Assembly: GCA_016861045.1 (NCBI GenBank)
Contig: BOKP01000001.1
Location: forward strand, 251,529 to 315,528
DNA length: 64,000 bases
Reading direction: 5' to 3'
Origin: Actinomycetes bacterium
Lineage (GTDB): Bacteria; Actinomycetota; Thermoleophilia; Solirubrobacterales; 70-9
Shown: one piece after another, positions 2,634 through 19,877 of the stretch
Position numbering within the stretch: the first letter of the stretch is position 1
Layout: every line of letters starts with the position of its first letter
Position numbers and translations under genes: made by a program
The notes under the pieces: model-generated
Databases searched by the model: none
Told to the model about the DNA's origin: nothing
The model's input: the letters and a program-made list of their open reading frames with translations, nothing else

Positions 2634-3956
2634 CTACGGGGTGCCGTTGAGCACGTCGCTGGCGACCTCGTGGACGAACGTGTTCGGATGGACGCCGGAG
2701 AAGCGCTCGGCTCCGGGCCCGGCCGCCGTCACCGGAACCATCAGGCCGGTGTGGCCGGGGGTCGTCCAGTCGACCTTGAACTTCGCGTCCTTGCCCTTGA
2801 CCTTGAACGGGCCCGACCGCTTCGGCGTCTCACCGCCGGGGAGCGGCACGTTCTGCGGCGTGCCGTAGGCGGGGACGTCGCCGTCGGGGCCGCTGTTGGT
2901 CGACTTCATCGCCGGCGTCTCGACCGTCATCCCGCCGGTCTCGTGGTCGGCGGTGACGATCAACAGCACGTTCGGGTTCGTCTCCCGGTACTCCTGGACG
3001 ACCTCGACCATCTTGTTGACGATCTGCCCCGACTGGATGATCGACTTGCCGTCATGCTCGTGGCCGGCGTCGTCGAGCTCGTCGACGTCGGCGGCGATGA
3101 AGAAGCCCTCGGGGTTCTGCCCGAGGATCTCGAGCGCCTTCTCCATCAGCACCGGCTCGGGCACGAAGTGCGGGTCCTCGTCCTTCTTGTAGCCCTTGAT
3201 CTCGTGGCCGCGGATGTAGGCGTCGTCCTGGACCAGCGCCAGCGCCTGCGGGCCGGTGAGCTCGTCGAACGTCTTCCGGTTCCACGCGTACTGGTAGCCC
3301 TGGTCGATCGCCTTCTTGACGAGGTTCTCACGACCGGTCGACTTGTCGTCGGAGATCACGTCCGGCAGCTTGCCCGGATGCCCCTCCGGGTACCAGACCT
3401 CCTCGCCGCCGCCGAAGATCACGTCGGGGTGGGTCTCCTCGAGGTACTGGCGCGCCGCCTGGGCCTTGTTGTCGCGGTTCTTGACGTGCGCGGCGAAGCC
3501 CATCATCGTCGCGTTGGTGACGTCGTGGTCCTCGACCAGGCCGGTCGACTTGCCGAGGCTCCGCGCCAGCTCGACCAGGTTCTCGAGCTTCTTGCCGTTC
3601 GGCGCGAGGCCCGCCTGGTTGTTCTTGACCTTGTGGCCCGTGCCCATCGCCGTCGCCCCCGCCGCCGAGTCGGTGACCGGGAGGATCGAGTTCGTCTTCA
3701 GCAGGCCGCCGGCCGGCAGCGCGTCCATCGGCTGGGTCTTGTAGCCGTACTTGGCGAGCTGGGTCGCGGTTCGCTGCGCGGGCCCCATTCCGTCGCCGCT
3801 GATGATCACGACGCTGTATCCGGTGGACGGTGCCGCGTCGGCCGAGCCGGGCCGCTCGGCGGCCAGGATCCCGGCCGCCAGGGCGGCCAGCGCGCCGGCC
3901 GCGATCAGCAGCCGGTTGCGAAGGCTGTGCTTGCCTTGGACGAGTTTCGATGCCAT
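2634..3956 (-). CDS. Secreted alkaline phosphatase, PhoA family
   Basis: 440 residues. A basic N-region plus a hydrophobic stretch (LLIAAGALAALAAGILA, ~16-33) forms a Sec-type signal. The metal/nucleophile motif VTDSAAGATAMGTG near residue 95 places the nucleophilic Ser. ADVDELDDAGHEHD (~290) and TADHETGGM (~335) supply zinc ligands, and TPGHTGLMVPV (~400) supplies the last His ligand. Members hydrolyse phosphomonoesters outside the cytoplasm. It is divergent from the class III aminotransferase at 4080, and the 123-base gap holds a GntR-type inverted repeat. That suggests control by the cluster regulator rather than, or in addition to, phosphate starvation; no obvious Pho box was seen. Confidence 0.9.
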   Translation of the reverse strand: MASKLVQGKHSLRNRLLIAAGALAALAAGILAAERPGSADAAPSTGYSVVIISGDGMGPAQRTATQLAKYGYKTQPMDALPAGGLLKTNSILPVTDSAAGATAMGTGHKVKNNQAGLAPNGKKLENLVELARSLGKSTGLVEDHDVTNATMMGFAAHVKNRDNKAQAARQYLEETHPDVIFGGGEEVWYPEGHPGKLPDVISDDKSTGRENLVKKAIDQGYQYAWNRKTFDELTGPQALALVQDDAYIRGHEIKGYKKDEDPHFVPEPVLMEKALEILGQNPEGFFIAADVDELDDAGHEHDGKSIIQSGQIVNKMVEVVQEYRETNPNVLLIVTADHETGGMTVETPAMKSTNSGPDGDVPAYGTPQNVPLPGGETPKRSGPFKVKGKDAKFKVDWTTPGHTGLMVPVTAAGPGAERFSGVHPNTFVHEVASDVLNGTP

Positions 3957-3978
3957 CTCTCAACCACCCCAGAAGGTA

Positions 3979-3995
3979 GAATTGTGGAACAATTC
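3979..3995. promoter_or_regulatory. Inverted-repeat operator, probable site for the GntR/FCD regulator at 9726
   Basis: GAATTGTGGAACAATTC is a perfect 7+3+7 inverted repeat, strikingly AT-rich for this genome. Its first 15 bases recur identically at 9721, at the start of the GntR regulator gene. GntR-family operators typically have GT...AC half sites, as here (TTGT-GGA-ACAA). On the minus strand a TANNNT -10 element (TACGAT, 4006-4001) would place the phosphatase transcription start inside the repeat. On the plus strand the repeat covers a possible -35 (TTGTGG, 16 bases before TATCGA 4005-4010). Both arrangements would allow repression. Confidence 0.7.
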
Positions 3996-4079
3996 CGCCA
4001 ATCGTATCGAACTTTCCCAAAAAAGGCGCCGGTTGCCGTGGGACGCGCCGACCAACCGGTCCGCGGACGGGCGGATCCC

Positions 4080-5464
4080 GTGACGCGCGCCGATAATCAG
4101 ATCGTGGCGTCTCCCGATCACGTGCCGGCCCCCGCCGTCAGGACCGCGCTCCCGGGCCCGCGGTCGCGGGCGCTCCTGGAGTCCGGCGAGGGGCTGCTCT
4201 ACGCCGGGCTGGCCGCCGACCTGGCGCCGCTCGTCCTCGATCGCAAGCGGGGCTACACGGCGACCGACGTCGACGGCAACGTCTTCTACGACCTCGCGTC
4301 CGCCTCGGCCTCGGTGCCGCTCGGCGCCTGCCGCGAGGACCTGATCGAGCCCGCGGTGGCGGCGATCCGCCGCTGGGGCAACGAGGACAGCCACGCCCTC
4401 TCCTCGCCGCCGATGTTCGAGCTCGCGCGCCGCCTCGTCGAGCTGGCGCCGGATTCGATCGACCGCGTCGACATCGCGCTGAACGGGACCGAGGCGGTCG
4501 AGACCGCGGTCCGGCTGATGCGGCGGGCCACGGGCCGCCCGCTGGTCCTCGCCTTTCACGGCGGCTACCACGGCGAGTCGACCGCGACCGCGACGCTCGG
4601 CGCCGAGGCGGCCTCGATCAGCGCCGGTGACCGCGCGCTCGGGACCGGCTTCTTCCACGCCCCCTACCCGAACCCGTATCGCTCGCCGCTCGCTCCCGCC
4701 CGTCCGGGCGGAAGCGGCGACGCCACCGTCGACTACATCCGTGACGAGCTCCTCTTCCACCTCGTCGACCCCGGCCTCGTCGCCGGCGTCGTGATCGAGC
4801 CGATCCTCGGGTCCGGCGGCTGCATCGCTCCGCCCGACTCGTTCTGGCGCGCCCTGACCGCGCTCTGCTCCGAGCACGGCTGGCTGCTCTGCGCCGACGA
4901 GGTCAAGACCGGCATGGGCCGCGGCGGGACGATGCTCGCCGTGGAGCGCTGGGAGGTCGAGCCGGACCTGATCTGCATGGGCAAGGCGCTCGGCGGCGGG
5001 GTGATGCCGATCGGCGCCGTCCTCGGCACCGAGGCGGTGCTCGGCGCCGTCGACGACCTCAGCACCGGCAGCACCTGGTCCTGGCTGCCGGGATCGGTCG
5101 CGGCCGCGCTCGCCACGCTCGATGCCTACGAGCGCGAGGACGTGCTCGGCAACGTCGCCGCGCTCGAGGCGGTGGCGGCCGAGAGGCTCGCCGGGCTCGC
5201 CGGCCGCCACGAGCGGATCGGGGACGTCCGCGCGATCGGCTGCTTTCAGGCGATCGAGTTCGTCCGCGACCGGGCGAGCAAGGAGCGCGACCCCGTCCTC
5301 CAGGGCGCCGTCGCCAGGCTGGCGCTCGAGCGGGGCATCCTCGCCGACTCCTCGACCGCGTCGCTGAACCTGCAGCCGTCGCTGCTGATGCCGCCGGAGG
5401 CGCTCGAGGTCGCCTACGACCTCGTCGCCGAGAGCATCGGCGCGGCCCTCTCGGGGGACGCCCG

Positions 5465-5468
<4 letters not shown>
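4080..5468 (+). CDS. Class III (GabT-like) PLP-dependent aminotransferase
   Basis: 462 residues if started at GTG 4080, chosen for the GGGCGG 8 bases upstream; GTG 4104 or 4122 are alternatives. Fold-type I signatures include LNGTEAVETAVRL (~140), HGGYHGES (~160, PLP stacking), the Asp of LLCADEVKTGMGRGG (~270) that contacts the pyridine nitrogen, and the Schiff-base lysine in MGKALGGGVMPIG (~300). The family moves terminal amino groups of omega-amino acids, diamines or similar compounds onto 2-oxo acids; a few members act as lyases on phosphorylated amines. It overlaps the downstream Kbl gene (GTGA), so the two products are translationally coupled. Its promoter carries the GntR-type repeat. 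Confidence 0.85.
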
Positions 5469-6655
<1,187 letters not shown>

Positions 6656-6713
6656 GCGCTCGACCGCGCCCGGGCGCTCCGACGCTAACGCCGCGCCCGT
6701 TGCCGAAGGTACG

Positions 6714-7916
6714 ATGGGTGCCGCGTTGGGCGGCAGCGGGAAGTCACCTCGGGCCGGCCGGGTCGCGGTCACGGTGCTCTTGGCCCTGGCGATCGCACCC
6801 GCGACCGCGATCGGCTCGCCGCGCTCGGTGGCGTTGCGCGCGGCGGACTTCATCCTCTCCGCGCAGGACCGGCATGGAGCGATCCCCGATTCGCCAAGGG
6901 CGAGGACGGTCAACGAGGACTCCAACATGGAGTACGCCCTGGTCGGGCTCGCCGCCGCCTACGGGGCGAGCGGCCGCGAGCGTTACCTCGCGGGCGTCGA
7001 GAAGGGGATCCGCTGGCTGGCGGCCCGCGAGGAGATGGACGACCCCCGCTGGCGCGGGAGCTGGCGCTACGCCTACTCGGCCAAGCCCCCGTATCGGCCC
7101 CTCGCGGTCTCGCCCGGTCGCGGGATCGCCGACGTGCGCGGCGTGGACGCCACCTCGTCGCTGTTCGTCTACCTCCTCGACCTCCACCGGCGCCTGGCGG
7201 GAAACGGCGCCCTCGCCGCCGAGCTCGAGCCGAATGCCCGTGCCGCGCTCGACTTCGTCCTCGCGAGCAACCGCCTGCGGAGCGGCTTCTTCGCCAGCTC
7301 GTGGCAGCTGCACGGCGATGCCTGGCGCCTGTGGCGCTTCCAGTACGCGGCCGATCAGGGCGACGTGCTGCTCGGCTTGCGAGCCGGCGCCCGTCTCTAT
7401 GGGCACCCGGGCTACGCGGATGCCGGGGCGTTTCTGACCCGCCGGATCCCGCGTGCCTTCTTCAGCTCCGCCCGGGGCCGCTACGCGCTCGGACGGGAGG
7501 GAAACGCGCGCGACATGAGCCGGGAGGGGTTCGACGGGATCTTCCCGCAGGGCTACCTGCCCTGGATCCTCGGGCCGGGCAGGGCCAGCCGGCATGCGTT
7601 CGCATGGCTCCGGGACGGGGTGAGGCGAAGCGGCGCGGTCGTCCCCTGGACCCCCGGGCGGGCCTACACGCTGAGCGCGGCGATGCTCGGGCTCGCCGCG
7701 CAGGGATCGGATCGGCGTTGGCCCGCGCGCTCGCGGCGCTGGCTGCTGCGGGTTCCCTTCGACCGCCGGACCGGCGGCTTCCGCGACACGGCCGAGGCGC
7801 GGTCTCCCCGGTATGTCAACGTGGCCGCCTTCGCGATCCTCTCGCTGCTCCGCTTCCGCCCCTGGCGAGGAGGTCCCGCCACGTCGCTCGAGCGGGCCGC
7901 CGCGGGCTCGACGTGA
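6714..7916 (+). CDS. Secreted protein with helical-toroid-like repeats, unknown function
   Basis: 400 residues from ATG 6714. A basic N-terminus followed by VAVTVLLALAIAPATAIG (~18-35) forms a signal peptide. The mature part shows repeated helix pairs such as SNMEYALVGLAAAYGASGRERYL, SSLFVYLLDLHRRL and DVLLGLRAGARLYG. These resemble the alpha/alpha-toroid of six-hairpin glycosidases and epimerases, with many Trp/Arg/Tyr residues (WRGSWRYAY, WQLHGDAWRLWRFQY). I cannot name the enzyme. It follows the Kbl gene by 58 bases on the same strand and converges on the cupin gene. Whether it belongs to the GntR cluster is unclear. Confidence 0.7.
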   Translation: MGAALGGSGKSPRAGRVAVTVLLALAIAPATAIGSPRSVALRAADFILSAQDRHGAIPDSPRARTVNEDSNMEYALVGLAAAYGASGRERYLAGVEKGIRWLAAREEMDDPRWRGSWRYAYSAKPPYRPLAVSPGRGIADVRGVDATSSLFVYLLDLHRRLAGNGALAAELEPNARAALDFVLASNRLRSGFFASSWQLHGDAWRLWRFQYAADQGDVLLGLRAGARLYGHPGYADAGAFLTRRIPRAFFSSARGRYALGREGNARDMSREGFDGIFPQGYLPWILGPGRASRHAFAWLRDGVRRSGAVVPWTPGRAYTLSAAMLGLAAQGSDRRWPARSRRWLLRVPFDRRTGGFRDTAEARSPRYVNVAAFAILSLLRFRPWRGGPATSLERAAAGST

Positions 7917-7964
7917 TGGCGACGCCGCGACGGCCGCCATGACGCGCCACCGGGCCGGGGCCCC

Positions 7965-8324
7965 TCACCCCGGCTCGTGGATCACGTAGACCTTGGTCAG
8001 CGCCTCGTGGATCGTCCAGCGGGTCTCGGCGCCGGCGGGGAGGACGCAGACGTCGCCGGGCCCGACCTCGTGGGCTGCGCCCGCATGCTCGATCGTCGCC
8101 CGGCCGGAGAGGACGACGAACGCCTCGTCCGATTCAACGTCGGTGACCGTCCCCTCGGTGCAGCGCCAGACGCCGGTCGCGAGGGCATCGCCTCCGGGCA
8201 GCGGCGACGTCGCGATCTCGCCCTCGTAGGTCCGCGGCGATCCGGAAATCACCGTGGCGGGATCGAGCTCGGACTCGGCGAGCGCGACCCCGCCGGGCCG
8301 GGCGACGACGATCGACCGGCTCAC
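7965..8324 (-). CDS. Small cupin-fold protein (COG3450-like)
   Basis: 119 residues from GTG 8324, overlapping the stop of the upstream aminotransferase (GTGA). A single conserved beta-barrel cupin is visible: GVWRCTEGTVTDVESDEAFVVLSGRATI, then GPGDVCVLPAGAETRWTIHEALTKVYVI. The pattern matches the small cupins annotated as ureidoglycine aminohydrolase/ethanolamine-utilisation-EutQ-like. The usual metal-binding His is replaced (ESDEAFVVL), so metal binding is not assured. It is probably co-translated with the PLP enzyme and may act on its product. The neighbouring frame reads through both genes, but the overlap and the cupin start make two proteins more likely. Confidence 0.8.
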   Translation of the reverse strand: MSRSIVVARPGGVALAESELDPATVISGSPRTYEGEIATSPLPGGDALATGVWRCTEGTVTDVESDEAFVVLSGRATIEHAGAAHEVGPGDVCVLPAGAETRWTIHEALTKVYVIHEPG

Positions 8325-9688
8325 GATCCGGCCGCCAGCTCGCCGGCGATCCGGTCGAACGCGGCGGTGTGGGCGTCGATCTGCTCGGTCGTCGTCGCCG
8401 GCGAGATCAGGGCCATCATGTGAAACGGGGTGAACAGGATCCCCTCGTTGAGCATGTAGAGGTGCATGAGCTCGTCGAGCGGCCCCCCGATCACCGCCGC
8501 CGCCTCGGCGCCGTTCCGCGGCGGCTCGGGCGCGAACATGTACTCGACCCGGCAGCCGAGCCGGACCGCGCTCCAGTCGAGCCCGTGGCGCTCGATCGCG
8601 TCGTTGACTCCGGCCTCGTAGCGCTCGCCGAGCCCGATCATCCGCTCGTAAGCCCCCGGCGTCAGGACCTCGCCGAGGGTTGCGCGGACGGCCGCCAGCT
8701 GCAGGGCGTTGCCGGCGAGGGTGCCGCCGACCCCGCCGACGTCGGCGGCGTCCCAGAAGGTGGAGCCGATGACCCGCTCGGCGAGCTCGTCGCTGAGCCC
8801 GTAGGCGCCGGTCGGGATGCCGCCGGCGATCGGCTTGCCCATCGTGAGCGCGTCGGGCTCGAGCCCGTGGGCGGCGCTGTAGCCGCCGGGACCGCAGCTC
8901 AGCGTGTGGGTCTCGTCGATGATCAGCAGCGTCCCCGTCTCGCGGGTGATCCGCCGCAGCTCGTCGTGGTAGCCGGGGTCGGGGAGGACGATGCCGATGT
9001 TCGTCAGCGCCGGCTCGACGAGGACGCAGGCGACGTCCTCGTGGGCGAGCTCGCGCGCGAGCGCCTCGACGTCGTTGATCTCGACGACGCGGGTGGTCTC
9101 GGCCGGGTCGACCGGCGGCCCGACGCTGCCGTAGCGCGGGACCGGCCCGCCGCCGGGCCCGATCTCGACGACGGTCTCGTCGACGGAGCCGTGGTAGCAG
9201 TGGTTGTGGACGAGGATCTTCGACCGCCCGCTGACCTGCCGGCAGAGGCGGACCAGGAACCGGTTGGCGTCGGTCGCCGAGACGGTGAACTGCCAGTGCC
9301 GCAGGCCGAAGCGCTCGGCCATCAGCCCGCCGACCGCGCCGGCGTCCTCGCTCGGCAGCATCGTCGTGATCCCGCGCTCGGCCTGCGCCGCGATCGCCGC
9401 GACCGTCGGCGCCGGCGCGTGCCCGCACATGGCGCCGGTGTCGCCGAGGCAGAGATCGACGTAGGCGTTGCCGTCGACGTCGACGACCTCGGCACCGCGC
9501 GCCTGCTGCACGTAGACGGGGAAGCGCCCGGGCCAGCGGGTCATCCAGTTCATCGGCACGCCGGAGAGCAGGTCCTCGGCGGCCGCCTCGTAGATCTTGC
9601 GGGAGCGCGGGTGGAGCTCCTCGAAGCGCTCGCGCTCGCGCTCGAGCAGCTCCCTCACGCGGCCGGTCTCAGCGGTGCTGACTGCCAT
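8321..9688 (-). CDS. Class III aminotransferase-fold PLP enzyme, GSA-aminotransferase-like
   Basis: 455 residues from ATG 9688, which has GGTGAGG upstream; GTG 9697 is the alternative. Motifs: GAEVVDVDGNAYVDLCLGD (~68), VSATDANRFLVRL (~136), NHCYHGSVDE (~163), LLIIDETHTLSCGPGGY (~250) and the PLP lysine in MGKPIAGGIPTGAYG (~275). The ATDANRF and DETHT variants separate it from the GabT-like enzyme at 4080, so the two PLP enzymes probably do different steps. Related genes are usually annotated only as aspartate aminotransferase family. It is divergent from the GntR gene across only 37 bases and is coupled to a cupin, so it is very likely part of the same regulon. Confidence 0.85.
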   Translation of the reverse strand: MAVSTAETGRVRELLERERERFEELHPRSRKIYEAAAEDLLSGVPMNWMTRWPGRFPVYVQQARGAEVVDVDGNAYVDLCLGDTGAMCGHAPAPTVAAIAAQAERGITTMLPSEDAGAVGGLMAERFGLRHWQFTVSATDANRFLVRLCRQVSGRSKILVHNHCYHGSVDETVVEIGPGGGPVPRYGSVGPPVDPAETTRVVEINDVEALARELAHEDVACVLVEPALTNIGIVLPDPGYHDELRRITRETGTLLIIDETHTLSCGPGGYSAAHGLEPDALTMGKPIAGGIPTGAYGLSDELAERVIGSTFWDAADVGGVGGTLAGNALQLAAVRATLGEVLTPGAYERMIGLGERYEAGVNDAIERHGLDWSAVRLGCRVEYMFAPEPPRNGAEAAAVIGGPLDELMHLYMLNEGILFTPFHMMALISPATTTEQIDAHTAAFDRIAGELAAGS

Positions 9689-9713
9689 CTGCCTCACCCT
9701 TCCGTTTCTGTGC

Positions 9714-9719
9714 TATCGT
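9714..9719 (+). promoter_or_regulatory. Probable -10 element of a leaderless promoter for the GntR operon
   Basis: TATCGT fits the actinobacterial TANNNT -10 pattern. Its last base is seven bases before the GTG start at 9726, the spacing expected if transcription starts on the first base of the start codon. No Shine-Dalgarno sequence precedes the GTG, consistent with a leaderless mRNA. Confidence 0.5.
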
Positions 9720-9720
9720 C

Positions 9721-9737
9721 GAATTGTGGAACAATCT
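9721..9737. promoter_or_regulatory. Inverted-repeat operator overlapping the start codon of the GntR regulator
   Basis: GAATTGTGGAACAATCT contains the perfect ATTGT-GGA-ACAAT repeat and shares its first 15 bases with the site at 3979. The GTG start codon of the regulator lies inside it (9726-9728). In a 37-base divergent promoter region it could control both the regulator operon and the aminotransferase-cupin pair, making the regulator autoregulated. Confidence 0.7.
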
Positions 9738-11725: not shown

Positions 11726-11726
11726 G

Positions 11727-13154
11727 ATGGACCCGGCCCCGGCCGCTGAGATGGAGGCGTCCCGGGTGGGAGCCGCGGCGACGCTCGATCCACCCGCGAT
11801 CCGCAACCGCGCCGAGCTGCTCGACCACGGCCTGCACGCCCCCCGGGAGCTCGCCCTGCGGGTGGCAGAGGCTGGGCTCGCGGCATGCGACCCGGGCCTC
11901 GCGGTCGAGCGGATGGTCGCGGTCGAGGGTGACGAGCTCGTCGTCGCCGGCCGCCGCCACGCCCTCCATCCGGACGGCCGGATCGTCGTCCTCGGCTCCG
12001 GCAAGGCGACCCTGAAGATCGCGCTCGCGCTCGAGCGGATCCTCGGCGAGCGCCTCCACGGAGGCACCGTCGTCGTCCGCGAGGGCAGCGCCGCGGCCCG
12101 GCCCGAGCGGATCGAGCTGCTGGAGGCGGCGCATCCCATCCCCGACGAGCGCAGCGTCGCCGCGGCGGTGCGGCTGCTCGAGCGGGCCGGCGAGCTCGGC
12201 GAGCGCGACATCGTCATCGCCTGCTTCACCGGCGGCAGCTCGGCCCTGACCAGCCTGCCGCCGGCGGGCGTCTCGGCCGCCGACAAGGGCGATCTCCATC
12301 GGCTCCTGCTCGGCGCCGGCCTGCCGATCTCCGAGATCAACACCGTCCGGAAGCAGGTCTCGGGCTTCAAGGGCGGTCGCCTGGCGATCGCCGTGGCTCC
12401 GGCGAGGCTGATCAACCTGACCGTCTCCGACGTCGCCGGCGACGCCCTCGACGCGATCACCGACCCGAGCGTCCCCAACGACTCGACGCCCGCCGACGCG
12501 ACCGCGATCCTGCGCAGCCGCGACCTCTGGGGTGACGTCGCCGCCGGCATCCGCGCCCACCTCGAGAGCCCCGAGCTCGAGGTCCCGGACCTGAGCGCGG
12601 TCGAGATCCACTCGGTCCTGCTCGTCACCGGCGAGACGGCATGCGAGGCGATGGCGGCCGAGGCGCGGCGCGCCGGGGCCGAGCCGGTCATCCTCTCGAC
12701 CGGGCTCGAGGAGGAGGCCGGGCCGATCGGTCGCCTGCTCGCGCGGCTGGCGTTCGAGAGCGCCGAGCTCGGCCGGCCGTTCGCGCCGCCGGCGGTGCTG
12801 ATCGGCTGCGGCGGCGAGAGCACGGTCAGGCTCGGGCCGGGTGACGAGTTCGGCAGCGGCGGCCCCAACCAGGAGGCGGCGCTCGCCGCCGCGCCGGGGC
12901 TGGCCGGCAGCGACGTCGCCGCGGCCTTCATCGACACCGACGGCTCCGACGGCGGGACCGAGCTGGCGGGGGCGATCGCCGACGGGCTCACCGCCGAGCG
13001 GGCCGCCGCCGCCGGCATCGACCTCCGCTCGACGCTCGCCGGGCACCGCTCCGGCGCGGCGATCGCGGCGCTCGGCGACGGGATCGACACCGGGCCCACC
13101 CACACGAACGTCAACGACCTGTTCGCGGTCGCGATCGGGGGCGGTGCCCGCTGA
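11727..13154 (+). CDS. Glycerate 2-kinase, MOFRL/GckA family
   Basis: 475 residues, ATG one base after the enolase stop; ATG 11751 is an alternative start. VVLGSGKATLKIA (~95), EAAHPIPDERS (~134), CFTGGSSALTSLPP (~168), INTVRKQVSGFKGGRLAIA (~205) and the C-terminal TGPTHTNVNDLFAVAIG match the D-glycerate/hydroxypyruvate-type kinase family that makes 2-phosphoglycerate with ATP. It is cytoplasmic. The adjacent enolase-like gene suggests a short route glycerate to 2-phosphoglycerate to phosphoenolpyruvate, or an analogue of it. Its TGA overlaps the ATG of the ABC ATPase (TGATG). The N-terminal extension of ~25 residues before the first conserved helix may be non-coding if the second ATG is used. 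Confidence 0.88.
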   Translation: MDPAPAAEMEASRVGAAATLDPPAIRNRAELLDHGLHAPRELALRVAEAGLAACDPGLAVERMVAVEGDELVVAGRRHALHPDGRIVVLGSGKATLKIALALERILGERLHGGTVVVREGSAAARPERIELLEAAHPIPDERSVAAAVRLLERAGELGERDIVIACFTGGSSALTSLPPAGVSAADKGDLHRLLLGAGLPISEINTVRKQVSGFKGGRLAIAVAPARLINLTVSDVAGDALDAITDPSVPNDSTPADATAILRSRDLWGDVAAGIRAHLESPELEVPDLSAVEIHSVLLVTGETACEAMAAEARRAGAEPVILSTGLEEEAGPIGRLLARLAFESAELGRPFAPPAVLIGCGGESTVRLGPGDEFGSGGPNQEAALAAAPGLAGSDVAAAFIDTDGSDGGTELAGAIADGLTAERAAAAGIDLRSTLAGHRSGAAIAALGDGIDTGPTHTNVNDLFAVAIGGGAR

Positions 13155-14254
13155 TGGCGGCGATCGCCGAGCCGATGATCCGGCTGGAGCGAATCAGCAA
13201 GCGCTTCGGCGAGGCGCCGGCGGTCGACGACGTCTCGATCGGGATCGCCCGCGGCGAGTTCTTCTCGATGCTCGGCCCGAGCGGCTGCGGGAAGACGACG
13301 ACGCTGCGGATGATCGCCGGATTCGAGGAGCCGACGACCGGACGGGTGCTGCTCGACGGCGAGGACGTGACACTCGTCTCGGCCCGCCATCGCAACGTCA
13401 ACATGGTCTTCCAGGACTACGCGCTGTTCCCGCACATGTCGGTGGCCGAGAACGTCGGCTTCGGCCTGAAGCTGAAGCGCGTCCCGCGGAATGAGGCGCG
13501 GTCCCGGATCGAGGAGATGCTCGCGGTCGTCCGCCTCGAGGGGCTCGGCGAGCGGCGGCCGGCCGAGCTCTCGGGCGGGCAGCGGCAGCGCGTCGCCCTC
13601 GCGCGGGCGCTCGTCAACCGGCCGGCGGCGCTGCTGCTCGACGAGCCGCTCGGGGCGCTCGATCTGAAGCTCCGTCGCGAGATGCAGCTCGAGCTCAAGC
13701 GGATCCAGAAGACCACCGAGACGACGTTCGTCTACGTCACCCACGATCAGGAGGAGGCGCTGACGATGTCGGACCGGATCGCCGTGATGGACGGTGGCCG
13801 GGTCCAGCAGCTCGCCGACCCGAAGACCCTCTACGAGCGTCCCGACACGTCGTTCGTCGCCGACTTCATCGGCACCTCGAACGCCCTCGCGCTCAGCGTC
13901 GACCGGCGCGAGGGCGAGCTCGCGATCATGGAGCCCGGTCCCGGCGTCCGGGTCGCGGTCGCCGCCCCGGCCGCGGTCGGCGAGACGCTGCAGATCAGCA
14001 TCCGACCCGAGAAGATCTCGATCGTCGCGGGTGGCGACGGTGACGGCGGCGACTGCCGGGTCGACGGCGTCGCCGTCGAGCGGGTCTACCTCGGGTCGGT
14101 GTCGCAGACGGTGGTCGAGCTCCCGGGCGGCGAGCGCCTCGCGGTCCATGAGCTCAACGACGATGACGTATCGTCGATCGAGCCCGGGGACGCCGTCACC
14201 CTCAGCTGGCCGGCCCGCCACAGCCTCGTGGTCGGCGAGGAGGGAGGGCGATGA
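13154..14254 (+). CDS. ABC transporter ATPase, polyamine (PotA) type
   Basis: 366 residues. Walker A is GPSGCGKTT (~43), Q-loop FQDYALFPHMSV (~88), signature LSGGQRQRVALARAL (~140), Walker B LLLDEPLGALD (~163) and the H-loop THDQEEAL (~196). A C-terminal regulatory TOBE-like region (~245-366) includes ISIRPEKISIV, as in PotA and related importers. It powers the permease pair at 16409 and 17341. It starts on the last base of the glycerate-kinase stop and overlaps the first binding-protein gene (ATGA). Polyamine, 2-aminoethylphosphonate and iron importers share this architecture, so the substrate is not fixed by sequence alone. Confidence 0.92.
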   Translation: MAAIAEPMIRLERISKRFGEAPAVDDVSIGIARGEFFSMLGPSGCGKTTTLRMIAGFEEPTTGRVLLDGEDVTLVSARHRNVNMVFQDYALFPHMSVAENVGFGLKLKRVPRNEARSRIEEMLAVVRLEGLGERRPAELSGGQRQRVALARALVNRPAALLLDEPLGALDLKLRREMQLELKRIQKTTETTFVYVTHDQEEALTMSDRIAVMDGGRVQQLADPKTLYERPDTSFVADFIGTSNALALSVDRREGELAIMEPGPGVRVAVAAPAAVGETLQISIRPEKISIVAGGDGDGGDCRVDGVAVERVYLGSVSQTVVELPGGERLAVHELNDDDVSSIEPGDAVTLSWPARHSLVVGEEGGR

Positions 14255-15333
14255 CGCCGCGGCCGGCCCTCGCCGCCCTCGCGGCGATCGCCGTGGCGGC
14301 GATCGCCGGCTGCGGCGGCGCAGGCGGCGACGCCGAGCCCGCCCCGGCACCGTCCGACCCCGACGCGCCGGTGAGCGGGACGCTGACCGTTTTCGCCTAC
14401 CAGGACACGATCACCGACGAGATGCTCGATCCGTTCCGCGAGGCGAATCCCGAGCTCGAGGTGAAGACGGCGAGCTTCGGCTCCAACGAGGAGGCGGCCG
14501 CGAAGATGGCGGGTGGCTTCGAGGCCGACGTCGTCGAGGTCTGCCTCGACGAGATGAGCGCGCTCACCGACCGCGGCCTCCTGCGGCCGATCGACCCGGC
14601 CGGGATCGCCGACTGGGATCAGCTCGTGTTTCGCGACGCCGACGGCGTCCGCGACGGTGACGACGTGATGCTCGTGCCGCTCTCGGCCGGGCCGCAGGGG
14701 CTGATCTACGACGCCGAGGAGATCGCGCCGGGCGAGATCGACTCATTCGCCGACCTCTTCGACCCCGCCTACGCCGATCGCACCGCTCTCGAGGCCGACT
14801 ACCCGCTGCCCGCGATCGCCGAGACCGCGCTCGCGCTCGGCTTCGACGATCCGATGAGCCTGACGCCGGAGCAGCTCGAGCAGGTCAAGCAGAAGCTGAT
14901 CGACAGCCGCGACCAGTTCCGCTCCCTGTGGCGCTCCGACGCGGACGTCGTCAACCTCTTCAAGTCGAACGAGATCGCGCTCGCCGACGGCGGCCCGGGA
15001 CTGACGGAGCGGATCCGCGACACCGGCGTCGACGCTCGCTGGGTCGCGCCGGTCGAACGGCCGCTCTCCTGGGTCTGCGGCCTCGCGATCACGAGCGACG
15101 CAACCAACGTCGACGCGGCCTACAAGCTGATCAACTGGCAGGCCTCGCCCGAGGCGCAGGCGATCCGCGCTGCGAACGGCTACGTCGTCACCAATCCGAA
15201 GGCGATCCCGCTGGCCCCGCCGGGCGCCCGCAAGACTGCAGACCCGAGCTCGATCGACAACGCAATCGCAGAGACGGAGCCCCCCGACTACCAGGAGTGG
15301 GTCAGGGCGTTCCGGGAGTTCCAGGCACAGTGA
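14251..15333 (+). CDS. Substrate-binding lipoprotein 1, PotD-like
   Basis: 360 residues, ATG overlapping the ATPase stop. The signal ends in a lipobox (AAIAGC, Cys ~21), followed by a Gly/Ala/Pro linker. The mature domain has the polyamine-binding-protein layout: VSGTLTVFAYQDTITDEML, GGFEADVVEVCLDEMSAL, PLSAGPQGLIYDAEEI, DSFADLFDPAYADRTALE, WVCGLAITSDATNVDAAYKLINWQASPEAQ. It captures the imported solute outside the membrane. It is exactly the same length as the next gene and shares long blocks with it, so the two are tandem duplicates. Differences in the cleft segments (WVAPVERP against WISPGEGA) hint at different ligands or affinities. Confidence 0.9.
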   Translation: MTPRPALAALAAIAVAAIAGCGGAGGDAEPAPAPSDPDAPVSGTLTVFAYQDTITDEMLDPFREANPELEVKTASFGSNEEAAAKMAGGFEADVVEVCLDEMSALTDRGLLRPIDPAGIADWDQLVFRDADGVRDGDDVMLVPLSAGPQGLIYDAEEIAPGEIDSFADLFDPAYADRTALEADYPLPAIAETALALGFDDPMSLTPEQLEQVKQKLIDSRDQFRSLWRSDADVVNLFKSNEIALADGGPGLTERIRDTGVDARWVAPVERPLSWVCGLAITSDATNVDAAYKLINWQASPEAQAIRAANGYVVTNPKAIPLAPPGARKTADPSSIDNAIAETEPPDYQEWVRAFREFQAQ

Positions 15334-15350
15334 CCCGGGAGGAGGTCAGG

Positions 15351-16433
15351 ATGAGAAGACAGATGTTGGCGGCGCTCATGGCGGCAACGGCATTGATCGC
15401 GCTCGCCGGGTGCGGCGGTGGCGGCGGCGACACCGGGGTGGCTCCGGCGCCCGACGACCCGGACGCGCCGGTGAGCGGGACGCTGAAGGTGTTCGCCTAC
15501 GGCGACACCGTCCCCGACGAGATGATCGCGCCGTTCGAGAAGGCGAACCCCGACGTCGACCTCGAAACCGCGACGTTCGACTCGAACAAGGCGGCGGCCG
15601 CGAAGCTGGCCGGCGGGTTCGAGGCCGACGTCGTCGAGGTCTGCACCGACGAGATGGAGCCGCTGCTGGCTCGGGGGCTCCTGCGGCCGCTCGACGAGGA
15701 GGCGATACCGGCCTTCGACGAGCTCGCCTTCTCGGACGCGCCCGAGGTTCGCGACGAGAACGGCGACGTGCTCTTCGTGCCCGCCTCGGCCGGACCGCAG
15801 GGGCTGATCGTCAACAGCGACGAGGTCGATCCCGCCGACGTGACCTCCTGGCAGGACCTGTTCGACGACGCCTACGCCGGCCGGGCGGCGCTGGAGGCGA
15901 CGCCGCTGACCGCGATCGGCGCCGCCGCGCTGGCGATGGGGATGGAGGACCCGATGAGCCTCAGCGACGAGGAGGTCGAGGATGCGAAGCAGTACCTGCT
16001 CGACCACCGCGACAACTTCCGCGCGTTCGCCGAGTCGGACGCGTCGATGGTGAACCTGTTCAAGTCGGGCGAGGTGGTGATCGCCGACGGCGGCCGCGGC
16101 ACCACGCAGGCGATGGTCGACGACGGCGTGCCGGTCGAGTGGATCTCGCCCGGGGAGGGCGCGCTGTCGTGGGTCTGTGGCCTCGCGATCACGTCGAAGG
16201 CGCAGAACATCGACGCGGCCTACAAGCTGATCAACTACTACGCCTCCCCGCAGGCGCAGGCGATCTCGGGCGACATGGGGTTCGTCGCGATGAACCCGAA
16301 GGCGCTGTCGATGGTCAGCCCCGAGTTCAAGCGGAGCGCCGACCCGCGCAACCTCGAAAACGCGATCCCGCAGACCGAGCCCGACAACGCCGACGTCTAC
16401 GAGCGCGCATGGCAGGAAGTCCAGGCCGAGTAG
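15351..16433 (+). CDS. Substrate-binding lipoprotein 2, PotD-like, tandem paralogue
   Basis: 360 residues from ATG 15351, chosen for the strong GGGAGGAGG Shine-Dalgarno upstream and because it starts a good lipoprotein signal (LIALAGC, Cys ~22). Blocks parallel the first copy: DAPVSGTLKVFAYGDTVPDEM, AGGFEADVVEVCTDEMEPL, PASAGPQGLIVNSDEV, LFKSGEVVIADGGRG, WVCGLAITSKAQNIDAAYKL. It has its own ribosome binding site, whereas most genes around it rely on stop/start overlap, which suggests higher or separate translation. It sits between copy 1 and the permease genes. Confidence 0.92.
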   Translation: MRRQMLAALMAATALIALAGCGGGGGDTGVAPAPDDPDAPVSGTLKVFAYGDTVPDEMIAPFEKANPDVDLETATFDSNKAAAAKLAGGFEADVVEVCTDEMEPLLARGLLRPLDEEAIPAFDELAFSDAPEVRDENGDVLFVPASAGPQGLIVNSDEVDPADVTSWQDLFDDAYAGRAALEATPLTAIGAAALAMGMEDPMSLSDEEVEDAKQYLLDHRDNFRAFAESDASMVNLFKSGEVVIADGGRGTTQAMVDDGVPVEWISPGEGALSWVCGLAITSKAQNIDAAYKLINYYASPQAQAISGDMGFVAMNPKALSMVSPEFKRSADPRNLENAIPQTEPDNADVYERAWQEVQAE

Positions 16434-17341
16434 CGGCCGCGGCGCCGGCGCCGGCCCGCGACGCGGCGCCGGCGCCGGTCGTGCGCCCGCTCGCGCATCG
16501 GTTGCGGCGGCGACTGCCGGGCCTCGCCGGGGGGATTCTGGTCGCCTTCGTGATGGTGGTCCTGTTCGGCCCGGTGCTGATGCTGGCGCTGTTCTCGTTC
16601 AACGACTCCTCGATCATCTCGCTGCCCTGGGAGGGGTTCACGACCAAGTGGTACGAGGAGGCCTGGAGCAACGGCCAGGCCCGTGACGCGGTCGTCAACT
16701 CGCTGATCGTGGCGACGATCGTGATGGTGCTCTCGGTCGTCCTCGGGACGCTCGCCGCCTGGGGGCTGACGCGGCTGCGGTTCCGGGGCCGCGGCTTCAT
16801 CGCCGGGCTGAACGGGGCGGTGCTCGTCGTTCCCTGGCTGATCATCGGCGTCGCCGGGCTGATCTTCTTCAGCGAGATCGGGGTATCGCTGTCGCTCGAG
16901 ACGATCACGCTGATGCACCTCGTCGTCACCTTCCCGCTGGTCGTCGCGATCGTCTCCGCCGGGCTCGTCCGCTTCCAGCGCTCGCTCGAGGAGGCGGCGA
17001 TCGACCTCGGCGCGACCCAGCGGCAGATGCTGCGCTACGTCGTCCTGCCGCAGGTCGGACCGTCGATCGCCGCCGCGTCGATCTTCGCCTTCGCCTGGTC
17101 GTTCAACAACTTCGAGATCTCGTTCTTCAACGGCGGCTTCGAGCAGACGTTCCCGGTCTGGGTCTTCTCGATCCTGCGCCAGTCCGAGAACCTGCCGGTC
17201 GTCAACGCGGTATCGACCGTGATCGCGGCCGCGCAGATCCTCGCCGTGTTCGGCGCCTGGGCGTTGATGAAGCGGCTGACCCGGAGCGAGGGCGAGGGGA
17301 GCGAGACGCTGACCGGGCTGCTGACGGGCGGGGCGCGCTGA
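16409..17341 (+). CDS. ABC transporter permease, PotC type
   Basis: 310 residues from ATG 16409, which overlaps the binding-protein gene by 25 bases; GTG 16481 is an alternative start giving a shorter cytoplasmic N-terminus. Six membrane segments are visible, starting at LAGGILVAFVMVVLFGPVLMLALF (~40). The cytoplasmic EAA loop SLEEAAIDLGATQRQMLRYVVLPQV (~193) docks the ATPase. It pairs with the PotB-type permease, whose ATG overlaps its TGA. Confidence 0.88.
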   Translation: MAGSPGRVAAAAPAPARDAAPAPVVRPLAHRLRRRLPGLAGGILVAFVMVVLFGPVLMLALFSFNDSSIISLPWEGFTTKWYEEAWSNGQARDAVVNSLIVATIVMVLSVVLGTLAAWGLTRLRFRGRGFIAGLNGAVLVVPWLIIGVAGLIFFSEIGVSLSLETITLMHLVVTFPLVVAIVSAGLVRFQRSLEEAAIDLGATQRQMLRYVVLPQVGPSIAAASIFAFAWSFNNFEISFFNGGFEQTFPVWVFSILRQSENLPVVNAVSTVIAAAQILAVFGAWALMKRLTRSEGEGSETLTGLLTGGAR

Positions 17342-18240
17342 TGGAGTCGGCGACGATCCCCGCCCCCGCGCCGCGGCGCCCCCGCGCCCACCGTTGGCTG
17401 CGGCCGCTGGCCTTCCTCGGCACCCCTACGGCCCTGCTGCTCGTCCTCTTCCTCGGCCCGATGCTGGTCATGCTCGGGGTGGCGTTCGACCGCGGCCTCC
17501 TCGACGGAGGCCAGGGCGCGTTCAACCTGACGCTGACCAACTTCAGCGACGTGATCACCGACCCGCTCTACCGCGAGGTCGCCGTGACCACGTTCGAGAT
17601 CGCGACCGCGGCGATGCTCGCCCAGCTCCTCGTCGCGGTGCCGCTGGCCTATGTCATCGCCTTCAAGGCCGGCCGCTGGCAGCTGCCGATCCTGCTGTTC
17701 CTCGTCCTCGCCGACGAGCTCAACCCGATGGTCCGGATCTATGCCTGGCGGATGCTGCTCGGCCGCGAGGGGCTGATCAACGAGGGCCTGATGCGGATCG
17801 GGATCACAGACCAGCCGATCGACGCGCTCCTGTTCAGCCAGTTCGCGGTGACGCTGGTGCTCGCGACGAGCTACATCACCTACACGGTGATCCCGATCTA
17901 TGGGGCGATGAAGGCGATCGACGCCAACGTCTTCGAGGCGGCCCGCGACCTCGGCGCGGGCTGGTGGACGACGACGCGGCGGGTGCTCCTGCCGCTGATC
18001 GCGCCCGGGATCTTCGTCTCGCTGCTGCTCGTCTACATCCCCCTGTTCACCGACTTCGCGAGTCCGGCGCTGGTCGGCGGCACGAGCGGCTACATGCTCG
18101 GCAACGTCGTCAACGACCTCGTGCTCGAGTCGGGCGATCTAAACCGTGGCGCGGCGATGAGCATCATCATGCTCGTCCTCTCGGCGCTGTTCGCGCTCGT
18201 CGCCTACCGGCTCGCCCGGATCAACCGACTCGAGAGCTGA
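17341..18240 (+). CDS. ABC transporter permease, PotB type
   Basis: 299 residues, ATG overlapping the previous TGA (TGATG). Six hydrophobic segments; the EAA loop VFEAARDLGAGWWTTTRRVLLPLIAPGI (~200) is intact. The PotB-like feature VRIYAWRMLLGREGLIN follows helix three. With the PotC-type partner it forms the membrane channel. Gene order ATPase, binding protein, binding protein, PotC, PotB differs from the classical potABCD order. Confidence 0.9.
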   Translation: MESATIPAPAPRRPRAHRWLRPLAFLGTPTALLLVLFLGPMLVMLGVAFDRGLLDGGQGAFNLTLTNFSDVITDPLYREVAVTTFEIATAAMLAQLLVAVPLAYVIAFKAGRWQLPILLFLVLADELNPMVRIYAWRMLLGREGLINEGLMRIGITDQPIDALLFSQFAVTLVLATSYITYTVIPIYGAMKAIDANVFEAARDLGAGWWTTTRRVLLPLIAPGIFVSLLLVYIPLFTDFASPALVGGTSGYMLGNVVNDLVLESGDLNRGAAMSIIMLVLSALFALVAYRLARINRLES

Positions 18241-19877
18241 TGGGCGGCGGCGAGCGCTACGACGCCGTGATCGTCGGCGGCGGCCACAACGGGCTCGTGG
18301 CCGGGTTCTACCTCGCCCGCGCCGGCCTGCAGCCGCTCGTCCTCGAGCGCCGCGAGATCGTCGGCGGCTGCTGCGTCACCGAGGAGTTCGCACCGGGCTT
18401 TCGGGCCTCGACCGGGGCCTACGTGGTCAGCATGCTGCGGGAGCCGGTCTGGCGCGACATGCGGCTGGCCGAGCGCGGCATCCTGATCGACCCCGCTGGA
18501 CCGTCCCTGTACGGGTTCCCGGGTGGCGAGCGCCTGCTGCTCGGCGAGAGCATCCCCGCCTCCCAGGACGAGATCCGGCGCTTCTCGGCGGCCGACGCCC
18601 GCGCGCTGCCGGTGTTCGAGGCGGCTCTCGGACGCCTCGCCGAGGTCGTCGGGCCGCTGATGGACATGACGCCGCCCGACCCGGCGCGGGTGCGCCCCGG
18701 CGACCTGCCGGCGCTGCTGCGGCTCGCCGGCACCGCCCGCCGGCACCGAGCCCGGATCAACGACGCGCTCTACCTCTTCGCCACCTCCTGCACCCAGTAC
18801 CTCGGCGAGTTCTTCGAATCCGAGGTCGTCAAGGCGGCGATGGGATGGCACGCGATCAACGACTCGATCGCCGGACCGTCGACGCCGGGGACCGCCTACG
18901 TCCTCCTCCACGACCACGCCGCGGAGCAGGCCGGAGGCGGTCTGCGGAGCTGGGGCTTCGTCCGCGGCGGCATCGGCCGCGTCACCGCGGCGATGGCCGA
19001 CGCCGCGCGTGAGGCCGGGGCCGAGGTGCGGACCGGGGCCGAGGTCGAGCGTGTGGTCGTCGAGGGCGGACGCGCGACCGGGGTCGAGCTCGTCGACGGG
19101 ACCGTCATCGGCGCCGCGCGCGTCCTGTCCAACGCCGACCCGCTGCGGACGTTCTTCGACCTCGTCGGCGCCGAGCGGCTGCCGGCCGGCTACGTGGCTT
19201 CGCTCCGCAACTACCGCTGCGAGGGGACGAGCGTCAAGATCAACCTCGCCGTCGACCGCCTACCGGAGGTGGTCGGGATGCCGCCGGGTCGCGAGCCCTA
19301 CCTGGGCGGGATCATGGAGTTCGGCGGCTTCATCGCCGCCATGGACCGCGCCCAGCACGAGGCCCGCTCGGGGATGCTCGGCACGGACCCGCACGTCGAG
19401 GCGTGCATTCCGACCTTCCACGATCCGAGCCTGGCCCCCGAGGGCAAGCACGTGATCACGATCGACGTCAACTCCCAGCCCTACACGCTCGCGCCCGACC
19501 AGGGAACCTGGGATGAGCACCGCGACGCCGTCGCCGACCGCGCCATCGCCACCCTCGACGGCTACATGCCCGGCCTCGCCGACTCCATCCTCGCCCGCCA
19601 GGTCCTCAGCCCGGTCGACCTCGAGTCGCTGCTCGGGATCAGTGGCGGCCACGCCCTCCACGGCGACATGTCCTTCGACCAGCTCTTCACCCTGCGCCCG
19701 GTTCGCGGCCACGCCGACTACCGGACGCCGATCGAGGGGCTCTACCTCTGCGGCGCCGGCACCCACCCCGGCGGCGGCGTCAGCGGCGCCAACGGGCGAA
19801 ACTGCGCCCGCGAGGTGTTGCGCGACGCCCGCTCGCCGGCCGGCCGCCTCCGCGCCCGCGCCGCCCGCCGATCCTGA
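18240..19877 (+). CDS. FAD-dependent oxidoreductase, phytoene-desaturase/PYROXD2-like
   Basis: 545 residues, ATG overlapping the permease stop (TGATG). The N-terminal dinucleotide fold is YDAVIVGGGHNGLVAGFYLARAG, followed by the ERR-type ribose-binding motif LVLERREIVGGCC. The C-terminal FAD contact is GLYLCGAGTHPGGGVSGANG (~510). The long middle region (SKxx-type substrate domain) is similar to the CrtI/COG1233 amine- and carotenoid-oxidoreductase group. No carotenoid genes are nearby, and its position as last gene of a transporter operon suggests it oxidises the imported compound or a product. A long signal peptide is absent, so it is probably cytoplasmic or membrane-associated. Confidence 0.85.
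   Translation: MGGGERYDAVIVGGGHNGLVAGFYLARAGLQPLVLERREIVGGCCVTEEFAPGFRASTGAYVVSMLREPVWRDMRLAERGILIDPAGPSLYGFPGGERLLLGESIPASQDEIRRFSAADARALPVFEAALGRLAEVVGPLMDMTPPDPARVRPGDLPALLRLAGTARRHRARINDALYLFATSCTQYLGEFFESEVVKAAMGWHAINDSIAGPSTPGTAYVLLHDHAAEQAGGGLRSWGFVRGGIGRVTAAMADAAREAGAEVRTGAEVERVVVEGGRATGVELVDGTVIGAARVLSNADPLRTFFDLVGAERLPAGYVASLRNYRCEGTSVKINLAVDRLPEVVGMPPGREPYLGGIMEFGGFIAAMDRAQHEARSGMLGTDPHVEACIPTFHDPSLAPEGKHVITIDVNSQPYTLAPDQGTWDEHRDAVADRAIATLDGYMPGLADSILARQVLSPVDLESLLGISGGHALHGDMSFDQLFTLRPVRGHADYRTPIEGLYLCGAGTHPGGGVSGANGRNCAREVLRDARSPAGRLRARAARRS

What the first reader, a model, noticed from the sequence alone, without database searches (positions are those of the whole stretch)
2634..19877. 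Candidate undescribed catabolic cluster under one GntR regulator
A 17 kb block combines a secreted alkaline phosphatase, two different class III PLP enzymes, a Kbl-type synthase, a cupin, an aberrant enolase, glycerate 2-kinase, a PotABC-like importer with two binding proteins and an FAD oxidoreductase. I know of no described pathway with this set. Polyamine-type importers are also used for 2-aminoethylphosphonate, some class III PLP enzymes act on phosphorylated amines, and both the phosphatase and the altered enolase point to phosphorylated substrates. An amine-phosphate or phosphonate-like compound ending in PEP and acetyl-CoA/glycine is a hypothesis. A plain polyamine or amino-acid route is the main alternative.
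Basis: partly seen in the sequence, partly recalled or inferred. Interest (0 to 1): 0.8.

Follow-up and report, generated by a model that had tools for sequence, protein, structure and literature searches.

The report
Altered enolase–kinase pair for unknown amine
An uncultured bacterium carries a gene set under one switch, built around a modified glycolysis enzyme and its own kinase partner, that probably turns an unusual amine-bearing acid (perhaps isoserine) into a central metabolite; the same odd enzyme pair recurs, with different neighbours, in many bacterial phyla.

Summary
The gene block is real and looks like one regulon. The palindrome ATTGTGGAACAAT lies in both divergent intergenic regions (3981-3993, 9723-9735); ATTGTNNNACAAT occurs nowhere else in the 2.7 Mb genome. 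The block recurs in relatives, four of which have a similar site upstream of a phosphatase gene.

Its core is an enolase paralogue with its own glycerate-2-kinase-type partner. The His that in a cyanobacterial enolase binds the water near C3 of PEP is Glu; loop Ala is Arg; metal ligands and catalytic lysines are kept. The kinase lies within 1.6 kb, same strand, in 63 of 77 loci; 39 of 41 genomes have a second enolase.

In three Bacillota genomes the pair shares an operon with a PreA-like reductase, dihydropyrimidinase, carbamoyltransferase and carbamate kinase. I infer isoserine + ATP to 2-phosphoisoserine, then ammonia elimination to PEP. This is untested; other contexts (lactate-racemase-like, TRAP importer, hydroxyacid dehydrogenase) fit a glycerate-like acid equally well. 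The window's own external substrate is unresolved, probably a phosphorylated, non-polyamine amine.

The parts
2634..3956 (-). probably secreted alkaline phosphatase (PhoA-type, PF00245)
   Evidence: operator at 3981 in its promoter region; similar site upstream of AlkP in G035, G391, G401 and of PhoX in G198
3981..3993 (.). operator ATTGTGGAACAAT (FadR-type TNGTNNNACNA palindrome, consensus recalled), copy 1
4080..5468 (+). AT1, class III PLP enzyme (racemase/aminotransferase-like; start uncertain, GTG candidates 3984-4122)
5465..6655 (+). Kbl/BioF-family alpha-oxoamine synthase (PRK06939 451 bits, cutoff 460)
6714..7916 (+). protein with a signal-like N-terminus, no Pfam or NCBIfam match
7965..8324 (-). 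EutQ-like Cupin_3 protein
8321..9688 (-). AT2, class III PLP enzyme of PRK07046 (GSAM-like; alternative GTG start 9697)
9723..9735 (.). operator ATTGTGGAACAAT, copy 2, between AT2 and GntR (overlaps the GTG start candidate 9726)
9726..10454 (+). GntR-family (FCD) regulator
10451..11725 (+). variant enolase: C17, R43, H247, E361 (canonical S, A, E, H)
11727..13154 (+). variant glycerate 2-kinase (DUF4147 + MOFRL) of the clade paired with the variant enolase
13154..14254 (+). PotA-type ABC ATPase
14251..15333 (+). solute-binding protein 1
15351..16433 (+). solute-binding protein 2
16409..17341 (+). ABC permease 1
17341..18240 (+). ABC permease 2
18240..19877 (+). FAD oxidoreductase (Amino_oxidase Pfam; CrtO/CrtI-like in NCBIfam, below cutoffs)

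Best explanation
The block is one catabolic regulon controlled by its GntR-FCD protein through two identical operators. A secreted phosphatase frees an amine-bearing compound outside the cell, the ABC importer takes it up, and PLP and FAD enzymes process it to a small 2-hydroxy acid carrying an amine at C3; the best candidate is isoserine (3-amino-2-hydroxypropanoate). The kinase of the pair phosphorylates the 2-hydroxyl. The variant enolase then removes the C2 proton with its conserved lysine and expels ammonia instead of water, the Glu that replaces the canonical His sitting at the leaving group, to give PEP. Shown by sequence: the two operators, the conserved block, the co-diverged enolase-kinase pair beside housekeeping copies, and the altered residues. 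Inferred: the regulator's action, the substrate, ammonia as leaving group, PEP as product, and every upstream step in the window.
For: (1) Regulon: ATTGTNNNACAAT twice in the genome, both in the two divergent promoters. (2) Pair: of 77 distinct loci with the variant enolase, 62 have the kinase on the same strand within 1.5 kb and 1 at 1.6 kb; 12 of the 14 without it have under 1 kb of sequence downstream. Apart from two further pair types in Dehalococcoidia (see noticed), no other enolase match listed for 41 genomes lies beside a kinase match (read off). (3) Not a replacement: 39 of 41 genomes have a second enolase match, 22 of 41 a second kinase match. (4) Altered sites: E361 65/65 (guaranteed by the search pattern); independently C17 62/65, R43 60/65, H247 62/65, against S 17/17, A 17/17, E 13/17 in canonical copies; base, metal and phosphate residues unchanged. 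His367 and Glu168 of a cyanobacterial enolase hold the water 3.5 A from C3 of PEP (passages of PMC8996150); His367 aligns with E361. (5) Kinase: paired copies split from the 14 unpaired copies analysed (support 0.998; paired clade 0.956, missing L077 and including the 3 T2 kinases), with near-fixed changes S168T (50/52), G171S (51/52), R380P (51/52), N440H (52/52). (6) Isoserine context: carbamoyltransferase-enolase-carbamate kinase-kinase-PreA-dihydropyrimidinase in three genomes, pyruvate kinase within two genes; two continue with corrinoid protein, URO-D protein, methyltransferase and a nucleobase-type permease. No aminotransferase was among the genes scanned there. Arginase family beside the pair in two Proteobacteria. 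PEP users near the pair: pyruvate kinase, PEPCK. (7) Binding protein 2 lacks PotD's acids.
Against: No enzyme assay exists. In 14 loci (Desulfobacterota, Synergistaceae and others) the neighbour is a lactate-racemase-like enzyme, with a TRAP binding protein in 8 and a 2-hydroxyacid dehydrogenase in 7 of them, and no amine-specific gene was recognised; a glycerate-like acid fits these as well. Dehalococcoidia neighbours (UxaA-like, phosphotriesterase-like, SDR) are not explained. In 39 of 65 variants His159, a conserved active-site position, is Leu, so the family may hold more than one activity. The substrate evidence comes from other phyla; in the window AT1, AT2, Kbl, cupin and FAD enzyme are not placed in a pathway. 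The carbamoyltransferase is below every NCBIfam cutoff listed, PreA just below its own. Monophyly of the variant enolases rests on weak support (0.698, one outlier). TTGTNNNACAA is no commoner than its backwards control in six genomes, so in the relatives only the position of the sites speaks for them, and G402 has none in its block.
Confidence: 0.42

Rival explanations
1. The pair is a specialised isozyme set for D-glycerate: kinase makes 2-phosphoglycerate, enolase makes PEP; the altered residues tune regulation or kinetics, not substrate.
For: Enolase scores 518 bits on TIGR01060 (cutoff 300), all metal and base residues kept. Neighbours in 14 loci are LarA-like racemases, with a TRAP binding protein in 8 and a 2-hydroxyacid dehydrogenase in 7, and aldehyde:ferredoxin oxidoreductase in 3 loci, all compatible with glycerate.
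Against: A second enolase (39 of 41 genomes) and often a second kinase (22 of 41) coexist. The His that holds the substrate water is replaced, with two further lid residues, and the kinase changed in parallel. Reductive pyrimidine genes in the same operon do not lead to glycerate without a transaminase and a reductase, which were not among the genes scanned there.
Confidence: 0.25
2. The pair acts on another 2-hydroxy-3-X acid (X = methylated amine, ureido, guanidino or another group), with product PEP or a substituted PEP.
For: Diverse contexts: arginase family, Dehalococcoidia with further enolase-kinase pairs that carry V or S at the same position, M20 hydrolases in G401 and G402 and near the pair in two Syntrophomonadaceae.
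Against: Carbamoyltransferase plus carbamate kinase and arginase-family genes would remove carbamoyl or guanidino groups before the kinase step (inference from the gene sets). Glu at the leaving-group site suits a cation (inference).
Confidence: 0.22
3. A plain polyamine or amino-acid uptake and oxidation locus; the enolase and kinase are incidental passengers.
For: PotA subfamily score 380 (cutoff 355.6), class III PLP and FAD oxidoreductase genes.
Against: PotD acids missing in the second binding protein, and its Trp-x-Asp is Trp-x-Cys in both. Enolase and kinase are the part conserved across phyla. The operators lie in both divergent promoters of the block.
Confidence: 0.06
4. Phosphonate (2-aminoethylphosphonate-like) catabolism.
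For: GntR protein's best NCBIfam match is phnR_burk (84 bits), the ATPase matches PhnT2 (343), AT1 matches PbfA (211).
Against: All below cutoffs (271.5, 457.7 and 525); no phosphonatase or C-P lyase family among the proteins scanned.
Confidence: 0.05

Closest known systems
Enolase (phosphopyruvate hydratase, TIGR01060)
   Same: Family profile, metal ligands, catalytic lysines, phosphate-binding Arg-Ser, lid Ser
   Different: SHRSGETED is SERSGETED, PSGASTG is PSGRSTG, loop-3 Glu is His, DSRG is DCRG; a second, canonical enolase is present; paired with a kinase gene
Class II glycerate 2-kinase (DUF4147 + MOFRL; structures 1x3l, 2b8n)
   Same: Both domains; 268 and 213 bits to the two solved structures
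   Different: SGGGSAL is TGGSSAL, RKH is RKQ, TGPTGTN is TGPTHTN; separate clade; below NCBIfam glycerate 2-kinase cutoffs
Reductive uric acid pathway ending in 2,3-diaminopropionate (PMC12507026; abstract, section 9 and passages seen)
   Same: Hydantoinase, PydA-like reductase (in C. difficile), carbamoyltransferase, carbamate kinase and M20 hydrolase logic, as in the Syntrophomonadaceae operon
   Different: Ends with the YgeX lyase on 2,3-diaminopropionate; a text search of the paper found no isoserine, enolase or glycerate
PbfA, (R)-1-hydroxy-2-aminoethylphosphonate ammonia-lyase (PMC8154272; passages seen)
   Same: Removes ammonia from the phosphonate analogue of isoserine; class III PLP family like AT1
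   Different: PLP chemistry, inactive on D,L-isoserine; AT1 far below its cutoff
3-Methylaspartate ammonia-lyase
   Same: Ammonia elimination within the enolase superfamily (recalled; only the listing of PMC7241714 seen)
   Different: No phosphorylated substrate, different subgroup (recalled)
PotABCD / PhnSTUV-type importers
   Same: ATPase, two permeases, binding-protein fold
   Different: Two binding proteins; the second lacks PotD's amine-binding acids

Membership tests
Canonical enolase | Family profile score | tested here: met
   TIGR01060 518.5 bits, cutoff 300
Canonical enolase | Metal ligands and catalytic lysines | tested here: met
   D242, E283, D308, K333, K384 conserved 65/65
Canonical enolase | Active-site His of SHRSGETED and Ala of PSGASTG | tested here: not met
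   E361 and R43
Canonical enolase | 2-phosphoglycerate dehydration | not testable with these tools
   no assay
Glycerate 2-kinase class II | DUF4147 and MOFRL domains | tested here: met
   211 and 87.6 bits
Glycerate 2-kinase class II | NCBIfam equivalog cutoff and conserved motif residues | tested here: not met
   170 of 550 bits; S168T, G171S, R380P, N440H
GntR/FCD regulator | GntR HTH plus FCD domain | tested here: met
GntR/FCD regulator | Operator of TNGTNNNACNA type at its own promoter (consensus recalled) | tested here: met
   binding itself not tested
Polyamine importer PotABCD | Polyamine-binding acids of the binding protein (D168, E171, D257 of PotD; numbering recalled) | tested here: not met
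   binding protein 2: FWMDSLAI aligns with SWVCGLAI, TDDAREVF with EATPLTAI
Aminoethylphosphonate catabolism | PbfA, PhnW, PhnX or PhnA genes | tested here: not met
   PbfA 211 of 525 bits; no phosphonatase family among the proteins scanned
Reductive pyrimidine route (relatives, not the window) | PreA-like reductase, dihydropyrimidinase and decarbamoylating step beside the pair | tested here: met
   L164, L165, L166; TIGR02033 481 bits (cutoff 393), arcC 403 (cutoff 358), PreA 311 (cutoff 335, just below), carbamoyltransferase 266.5 (cutoff 288, just below)
Isoserine ammonia-lyase pair (proposed) | Activity on isoserine and 2-phosphoisoserine | not testable with these tools
   no assay

The most novel reading that the evidence does not exclude
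Kinase plus enolase is a general, previously unrecognised way to expel C3 groups from lactate-type acids as PEP: ATP-driven 2-O-phosphorylation followed by enolase-type elimination, with the residue at the canonical His position (Glu here; Val and Ser in two further Dehalococcoidia pairs) setting the leaving group. The Glu type is an ATP-dependent isoserine ammonia-lyase that lets bacteria feed 5-hydroxy- or 5-methoxypyrimidine-type and other amine compounds straight into PEP.
Probability: 0.35. Interest if true: 0.87.

Novelty: new variant of a known kind. Interest (0 to 1): 0.72.

Why it matters
Enolase is a textbook case of a single-function enzyme. A widespread clade with a changed leaving-group residue, its own kinase and amine-type operons would show that its chemistry was reused for ammonia release. 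It would also give a catabolic route for isoserine and for 5-oxy-pyrimidines; neither turned up in the paper searches made here. By profile score such genes would be named phosphopyruvate hydratase (the window's scores 518 against a cutoff of 300), which would mislead metabolic models.

Tried and rejected
Plain polyamine route: disfavoured by the binding-protein residues. Phosphonate route: marker families below cutoffs or not found. PbfA-like lysis of isoserine by AT1: PbfA itself is inactive on isoserine and AT1 is far below its profile. Identity of the carbamoyltransferase as YgeW: my first label, rejected (203 bits, cutoff 453; best match N-acetylornithine carbamoyltransferase 266.5, cutoff 288). 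Urate pathway as the source: it ends in 2,3-diaminopropionate, which has no 2-hydroxyl for the kinase. SAR202 enolase-superfamily expansion: the passage seen says nearly all are of the mandelate racemase family. Structure prediction was not run, since its stated output holds no coordinates for measuring distances.

Rows dropped before counts: five named loci (L037, L054, L055, L058, L068) that duplicate fetched unnamed regions, and L028, which has no enolase match; 5 of 70 variant enolases outside 380-480 aa were left out; of 21 sequences first taken as canonical, L139 proved to be a variant and L136, L142 and L143 other types, so 17 were used. Of 23 unpaired kinase matches, 14 were fetched for the tree. 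H361E is guaranteed by the search pattern and is not independent evidence. In one search the genome's own canonical enolase was read on the wrong strand; this was corrected. Gene calls in the loci come from a home-made caller and starts are approximate. Neighbour labels come from one or a few scanned members per BLAST cluster; DctQ, DctM and IclR were named by reading the sequence only.


Full report
OBSERVATION. The block 2634-19877 holds what the finding lists. Two divergent promoter regions organise it: phosphatase (-) against AT1-Kbl (+), and cupin-AT2 (-) against GntR-enolase-kinase-ATPase-SBP1-SBP2-permease-permease-FAD (+), the latter a tight same-strand chain. The window lies in a 2.7 Mb, five-contig genome, with 72% GC in the window.

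REGULON. Each of the two divergent regions carries ATTGTGGAACAAT (3981-3993 and 9723-9735). With up to 2 mismatches the window has just these two matches, 0.04 expected. In the whole genome ATTGTNNNACAAT occurs twice, both here, with 0 for the backwards control. The shorter TTGTNNNACAA occurs at only these two places in this genome and at two in G198, both in its homologous block; the backwards controls (4, 9, 11, 18, 13, 17 in six genomes) show that its number alone is not above chance. Position is what counts: in G198 the sites lie between GntR and AT2 and upstream of a PhoX phosphatase, which is not homologous to the window's PhoA type; in G035, G391 and G401 a site lies just upstream of the PhoA-type phosphatase. 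G391 has no other site in 4.1 Mb, G401 one other and G035 four others; G402 has four, none in its block. G401, of another genus, has the set as AT2 / enolase-GntR-kinase-PotA-SBP-SBP-permease-permease-FAD-(M20 and cupin in one frame) / Kbl-AT1-phosphatase, the last three on one strand behind the site. The finding's claim of one regulator is therefore supported by sequence; expression and binding were not measured.

THE PAIR. The enolase is a paralogue: a canonical enolase (57% identical) lies on another contig. The variant motif was searched as DNA: 6 of 199 genomes of the class, control 0, 1 of 149 of the Citrobacter family sample, and 78 stretches in the named collection, with titles from Actinomycetota, Chloroflexota, Deltaproteobacteria, Synergistaceae, Bacillota, other Proteobacteria, Archaeoglobi and more. 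By protein search 6 of 37 sampled genomes of the family have it, so it is patchy. Of 77 distinct loci with an enolase match, 62 have the kinase on the same strand within 1.5 kb, one at 1.6 kb, and 14 none; 12 of these 14 have less than 1 kb of sequence downstream. Wider fetches found the kinase for four of them (L021, L051, L060, L093), with a permease between in Citrobacter. The two archaeal loci (L069, L084) lack an adjacent kinase. In 41 genomes, 39 have a second enolase match (the others: one 1.0 Mb genome, and one with only a contig-edge fragment) and 22 have two or more kinase matches. Apart from the T2 and T3 pairs of Dehalococcoidia, none of the other enolase matches lies beside a kinase match (read off).

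RESIDUES. In 65 variants against 17 canonical copies: S17 to C (62/65), A43 to R (60/65), E247 to H (62/65; canonical E 13/17), H361 to E (65/65, by construction); K333, K384, E164, E207, D242, E283, D308, R362, S363 and S44 are invariant in both groups. In the cyanobacterial enzyme the water 3.5 A from C3 of PEP is bound to His367 and Glu168, and the carbonyl of Ala46 binds the second metal (passages of PMC8996150). These align with E361 and R43 of the window protein. So the changes sit at the leaving group and in the lid, while the proton-abstraction and phosphate sites are kept. The paired kinases separate from 14 unpaired kinases of the same genomes (support 0.998; paired clade 0.956, without L077 and with the three T2 kinases), with near-fixed differences in the SGGGSAL and TGPTxTN motifs. 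The variant enolases group less firmly (0.698, without L077).

CONTEXT IN OTHER PHYLA. Three genomes (two Syntrophomonadaceae, one Clostridia; L164-L166) have carbamoyltransferase-enolase-carbamate kinase-kinase-PreA-dihydropyrimidinase on one strand, with pyruvate kinase close by on the other. In two of them the chain continues with a B12-binding protein, a URO-D-type protein, a pterin-binding methyltransferase and a nucleobase-type permease, and an M20 hydrolase gene stands beside the pyruvate kinase. In all, 9 of 77 loci (five of them Chloroflexota or Aerophobetes) carry at least one of these pyrimidine-type genes. A PreA-dihydropyrimidinase-decarbamoylase sequence makes a beta-amino acid (established knowledge of the reductive pyrimidine pathway); one with the 2-hydroxyl that a glycerate-type kinase needs, namely isoserine, would come from a 5-hydroxypyrimidine (inference). 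The methyl-transfer genes would fit a 5-methoxy- or N-methylpyrimidine (inference). An arginase-family gene precedes the pair in an Arenicellales and a Kiloniellaceae genome, again an amine-releasing step. ATP-type PEPCK lies beside the pair in one Bacillota genome, and pyruvate kinase in others. Against this, 14 loci have a LarA-like racemase (TRAP binding protein in 8, hydroxyacid dehydrogenase in 7), where nothing is amine-specific, and Dehalococcoidia have UxaA-like, phosphotriesterase-like and SDR neighbours that I cannot place.

THE WINDOW'S OWN SUBSTRATE. The second binding protein aligns with PotD but lacks its acidic ligand residues, the first matches only Lmo0810 at the threshold used, and the phosphatase is behind the same operator. 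I read this as uptake of a small amine freed from a phosphate ester. In G401 and G402 an M20 hydrolase joins the set, suggesting an N-acyl or N-carbamoyl form. How AT1, AT2, Kbl, cupin and the FAD enzyme connect is not resolved.

LITERATURE. Full-text searches for isoserine with catabolism, enolase, glycerate kinase, degradation pathway or gene cluster, for 5-hydroxyuracil/isobarbiturate and 5-methoxyuracil breakdown, and for enolase paralogues with kinases listed no paper whose title or abstract start describes such a pathway; among papers opened, only PMC8154272 tested isoserine, with PbfA, and found no activity (passages). The library lacks most subscription journals, so this is not proof of absence.

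Noticed in passing
L158, L161, L163 (Dehalococcoidia): A second type of enolase-kinase pair (T2): NRGRPTIRA and MSVRSGETE (Val at the catalytic His position, Asp for Glu211), next to a phosphotriesterase-like gene in two of the three; found in genomes that also hold the Glu type and a further enolase.
   Followed up: partly
L159, L160, L162 (Dehalococcoidia): A third, very divergent enolase-kinase pair (T3; about 40% identity, Ser at the aligned His position, several catalytic residues changed) beside ABC ATPase genes; unlikely to act on 2-phosphoglycerate.
   Followed up: partly
L173 (Citrobacter amalonaticus S646): Variant enolase - MFS permease - kinase - Ddl homologue - GntR - pyruvate kinase, downstream of what looks like gabDTP-csiR; 1 of 149 sampled genomes of its family has the motif.
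   Followed up: partly
L164, L165: B12-binding protein, URO-D-type protein and pterin-binding methyltransferase inside a pyrimidine-type operon: a possible anaerobic demethylase for a methoxy or N-methyl nucleobase.
   Followed up: partly
L011 against window and L012: Non-homologous replacement of the phosphatase (PhoX for PhoA type) behind a similar operator.
   Followed up: yes
window 6714-7916: 400-aa protein with a signal-like N-terminus and no Pfam or NCBIfam match, between Kbl and cupin.
   Followed up: no
window 22067-23119: Protein with TAGHC and GASGGG motifs like a trypsin/V8-type protease (read by eye) but no Pfam hit.
   Followed up: no
variant enolases as a group: His159 is Leu in 39 of 65; His in the AT2-linked Actinomycetota loci and the Syntrophomonadaceae, Leu in most others, hinting at two subgroups.
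   Followed up: partly
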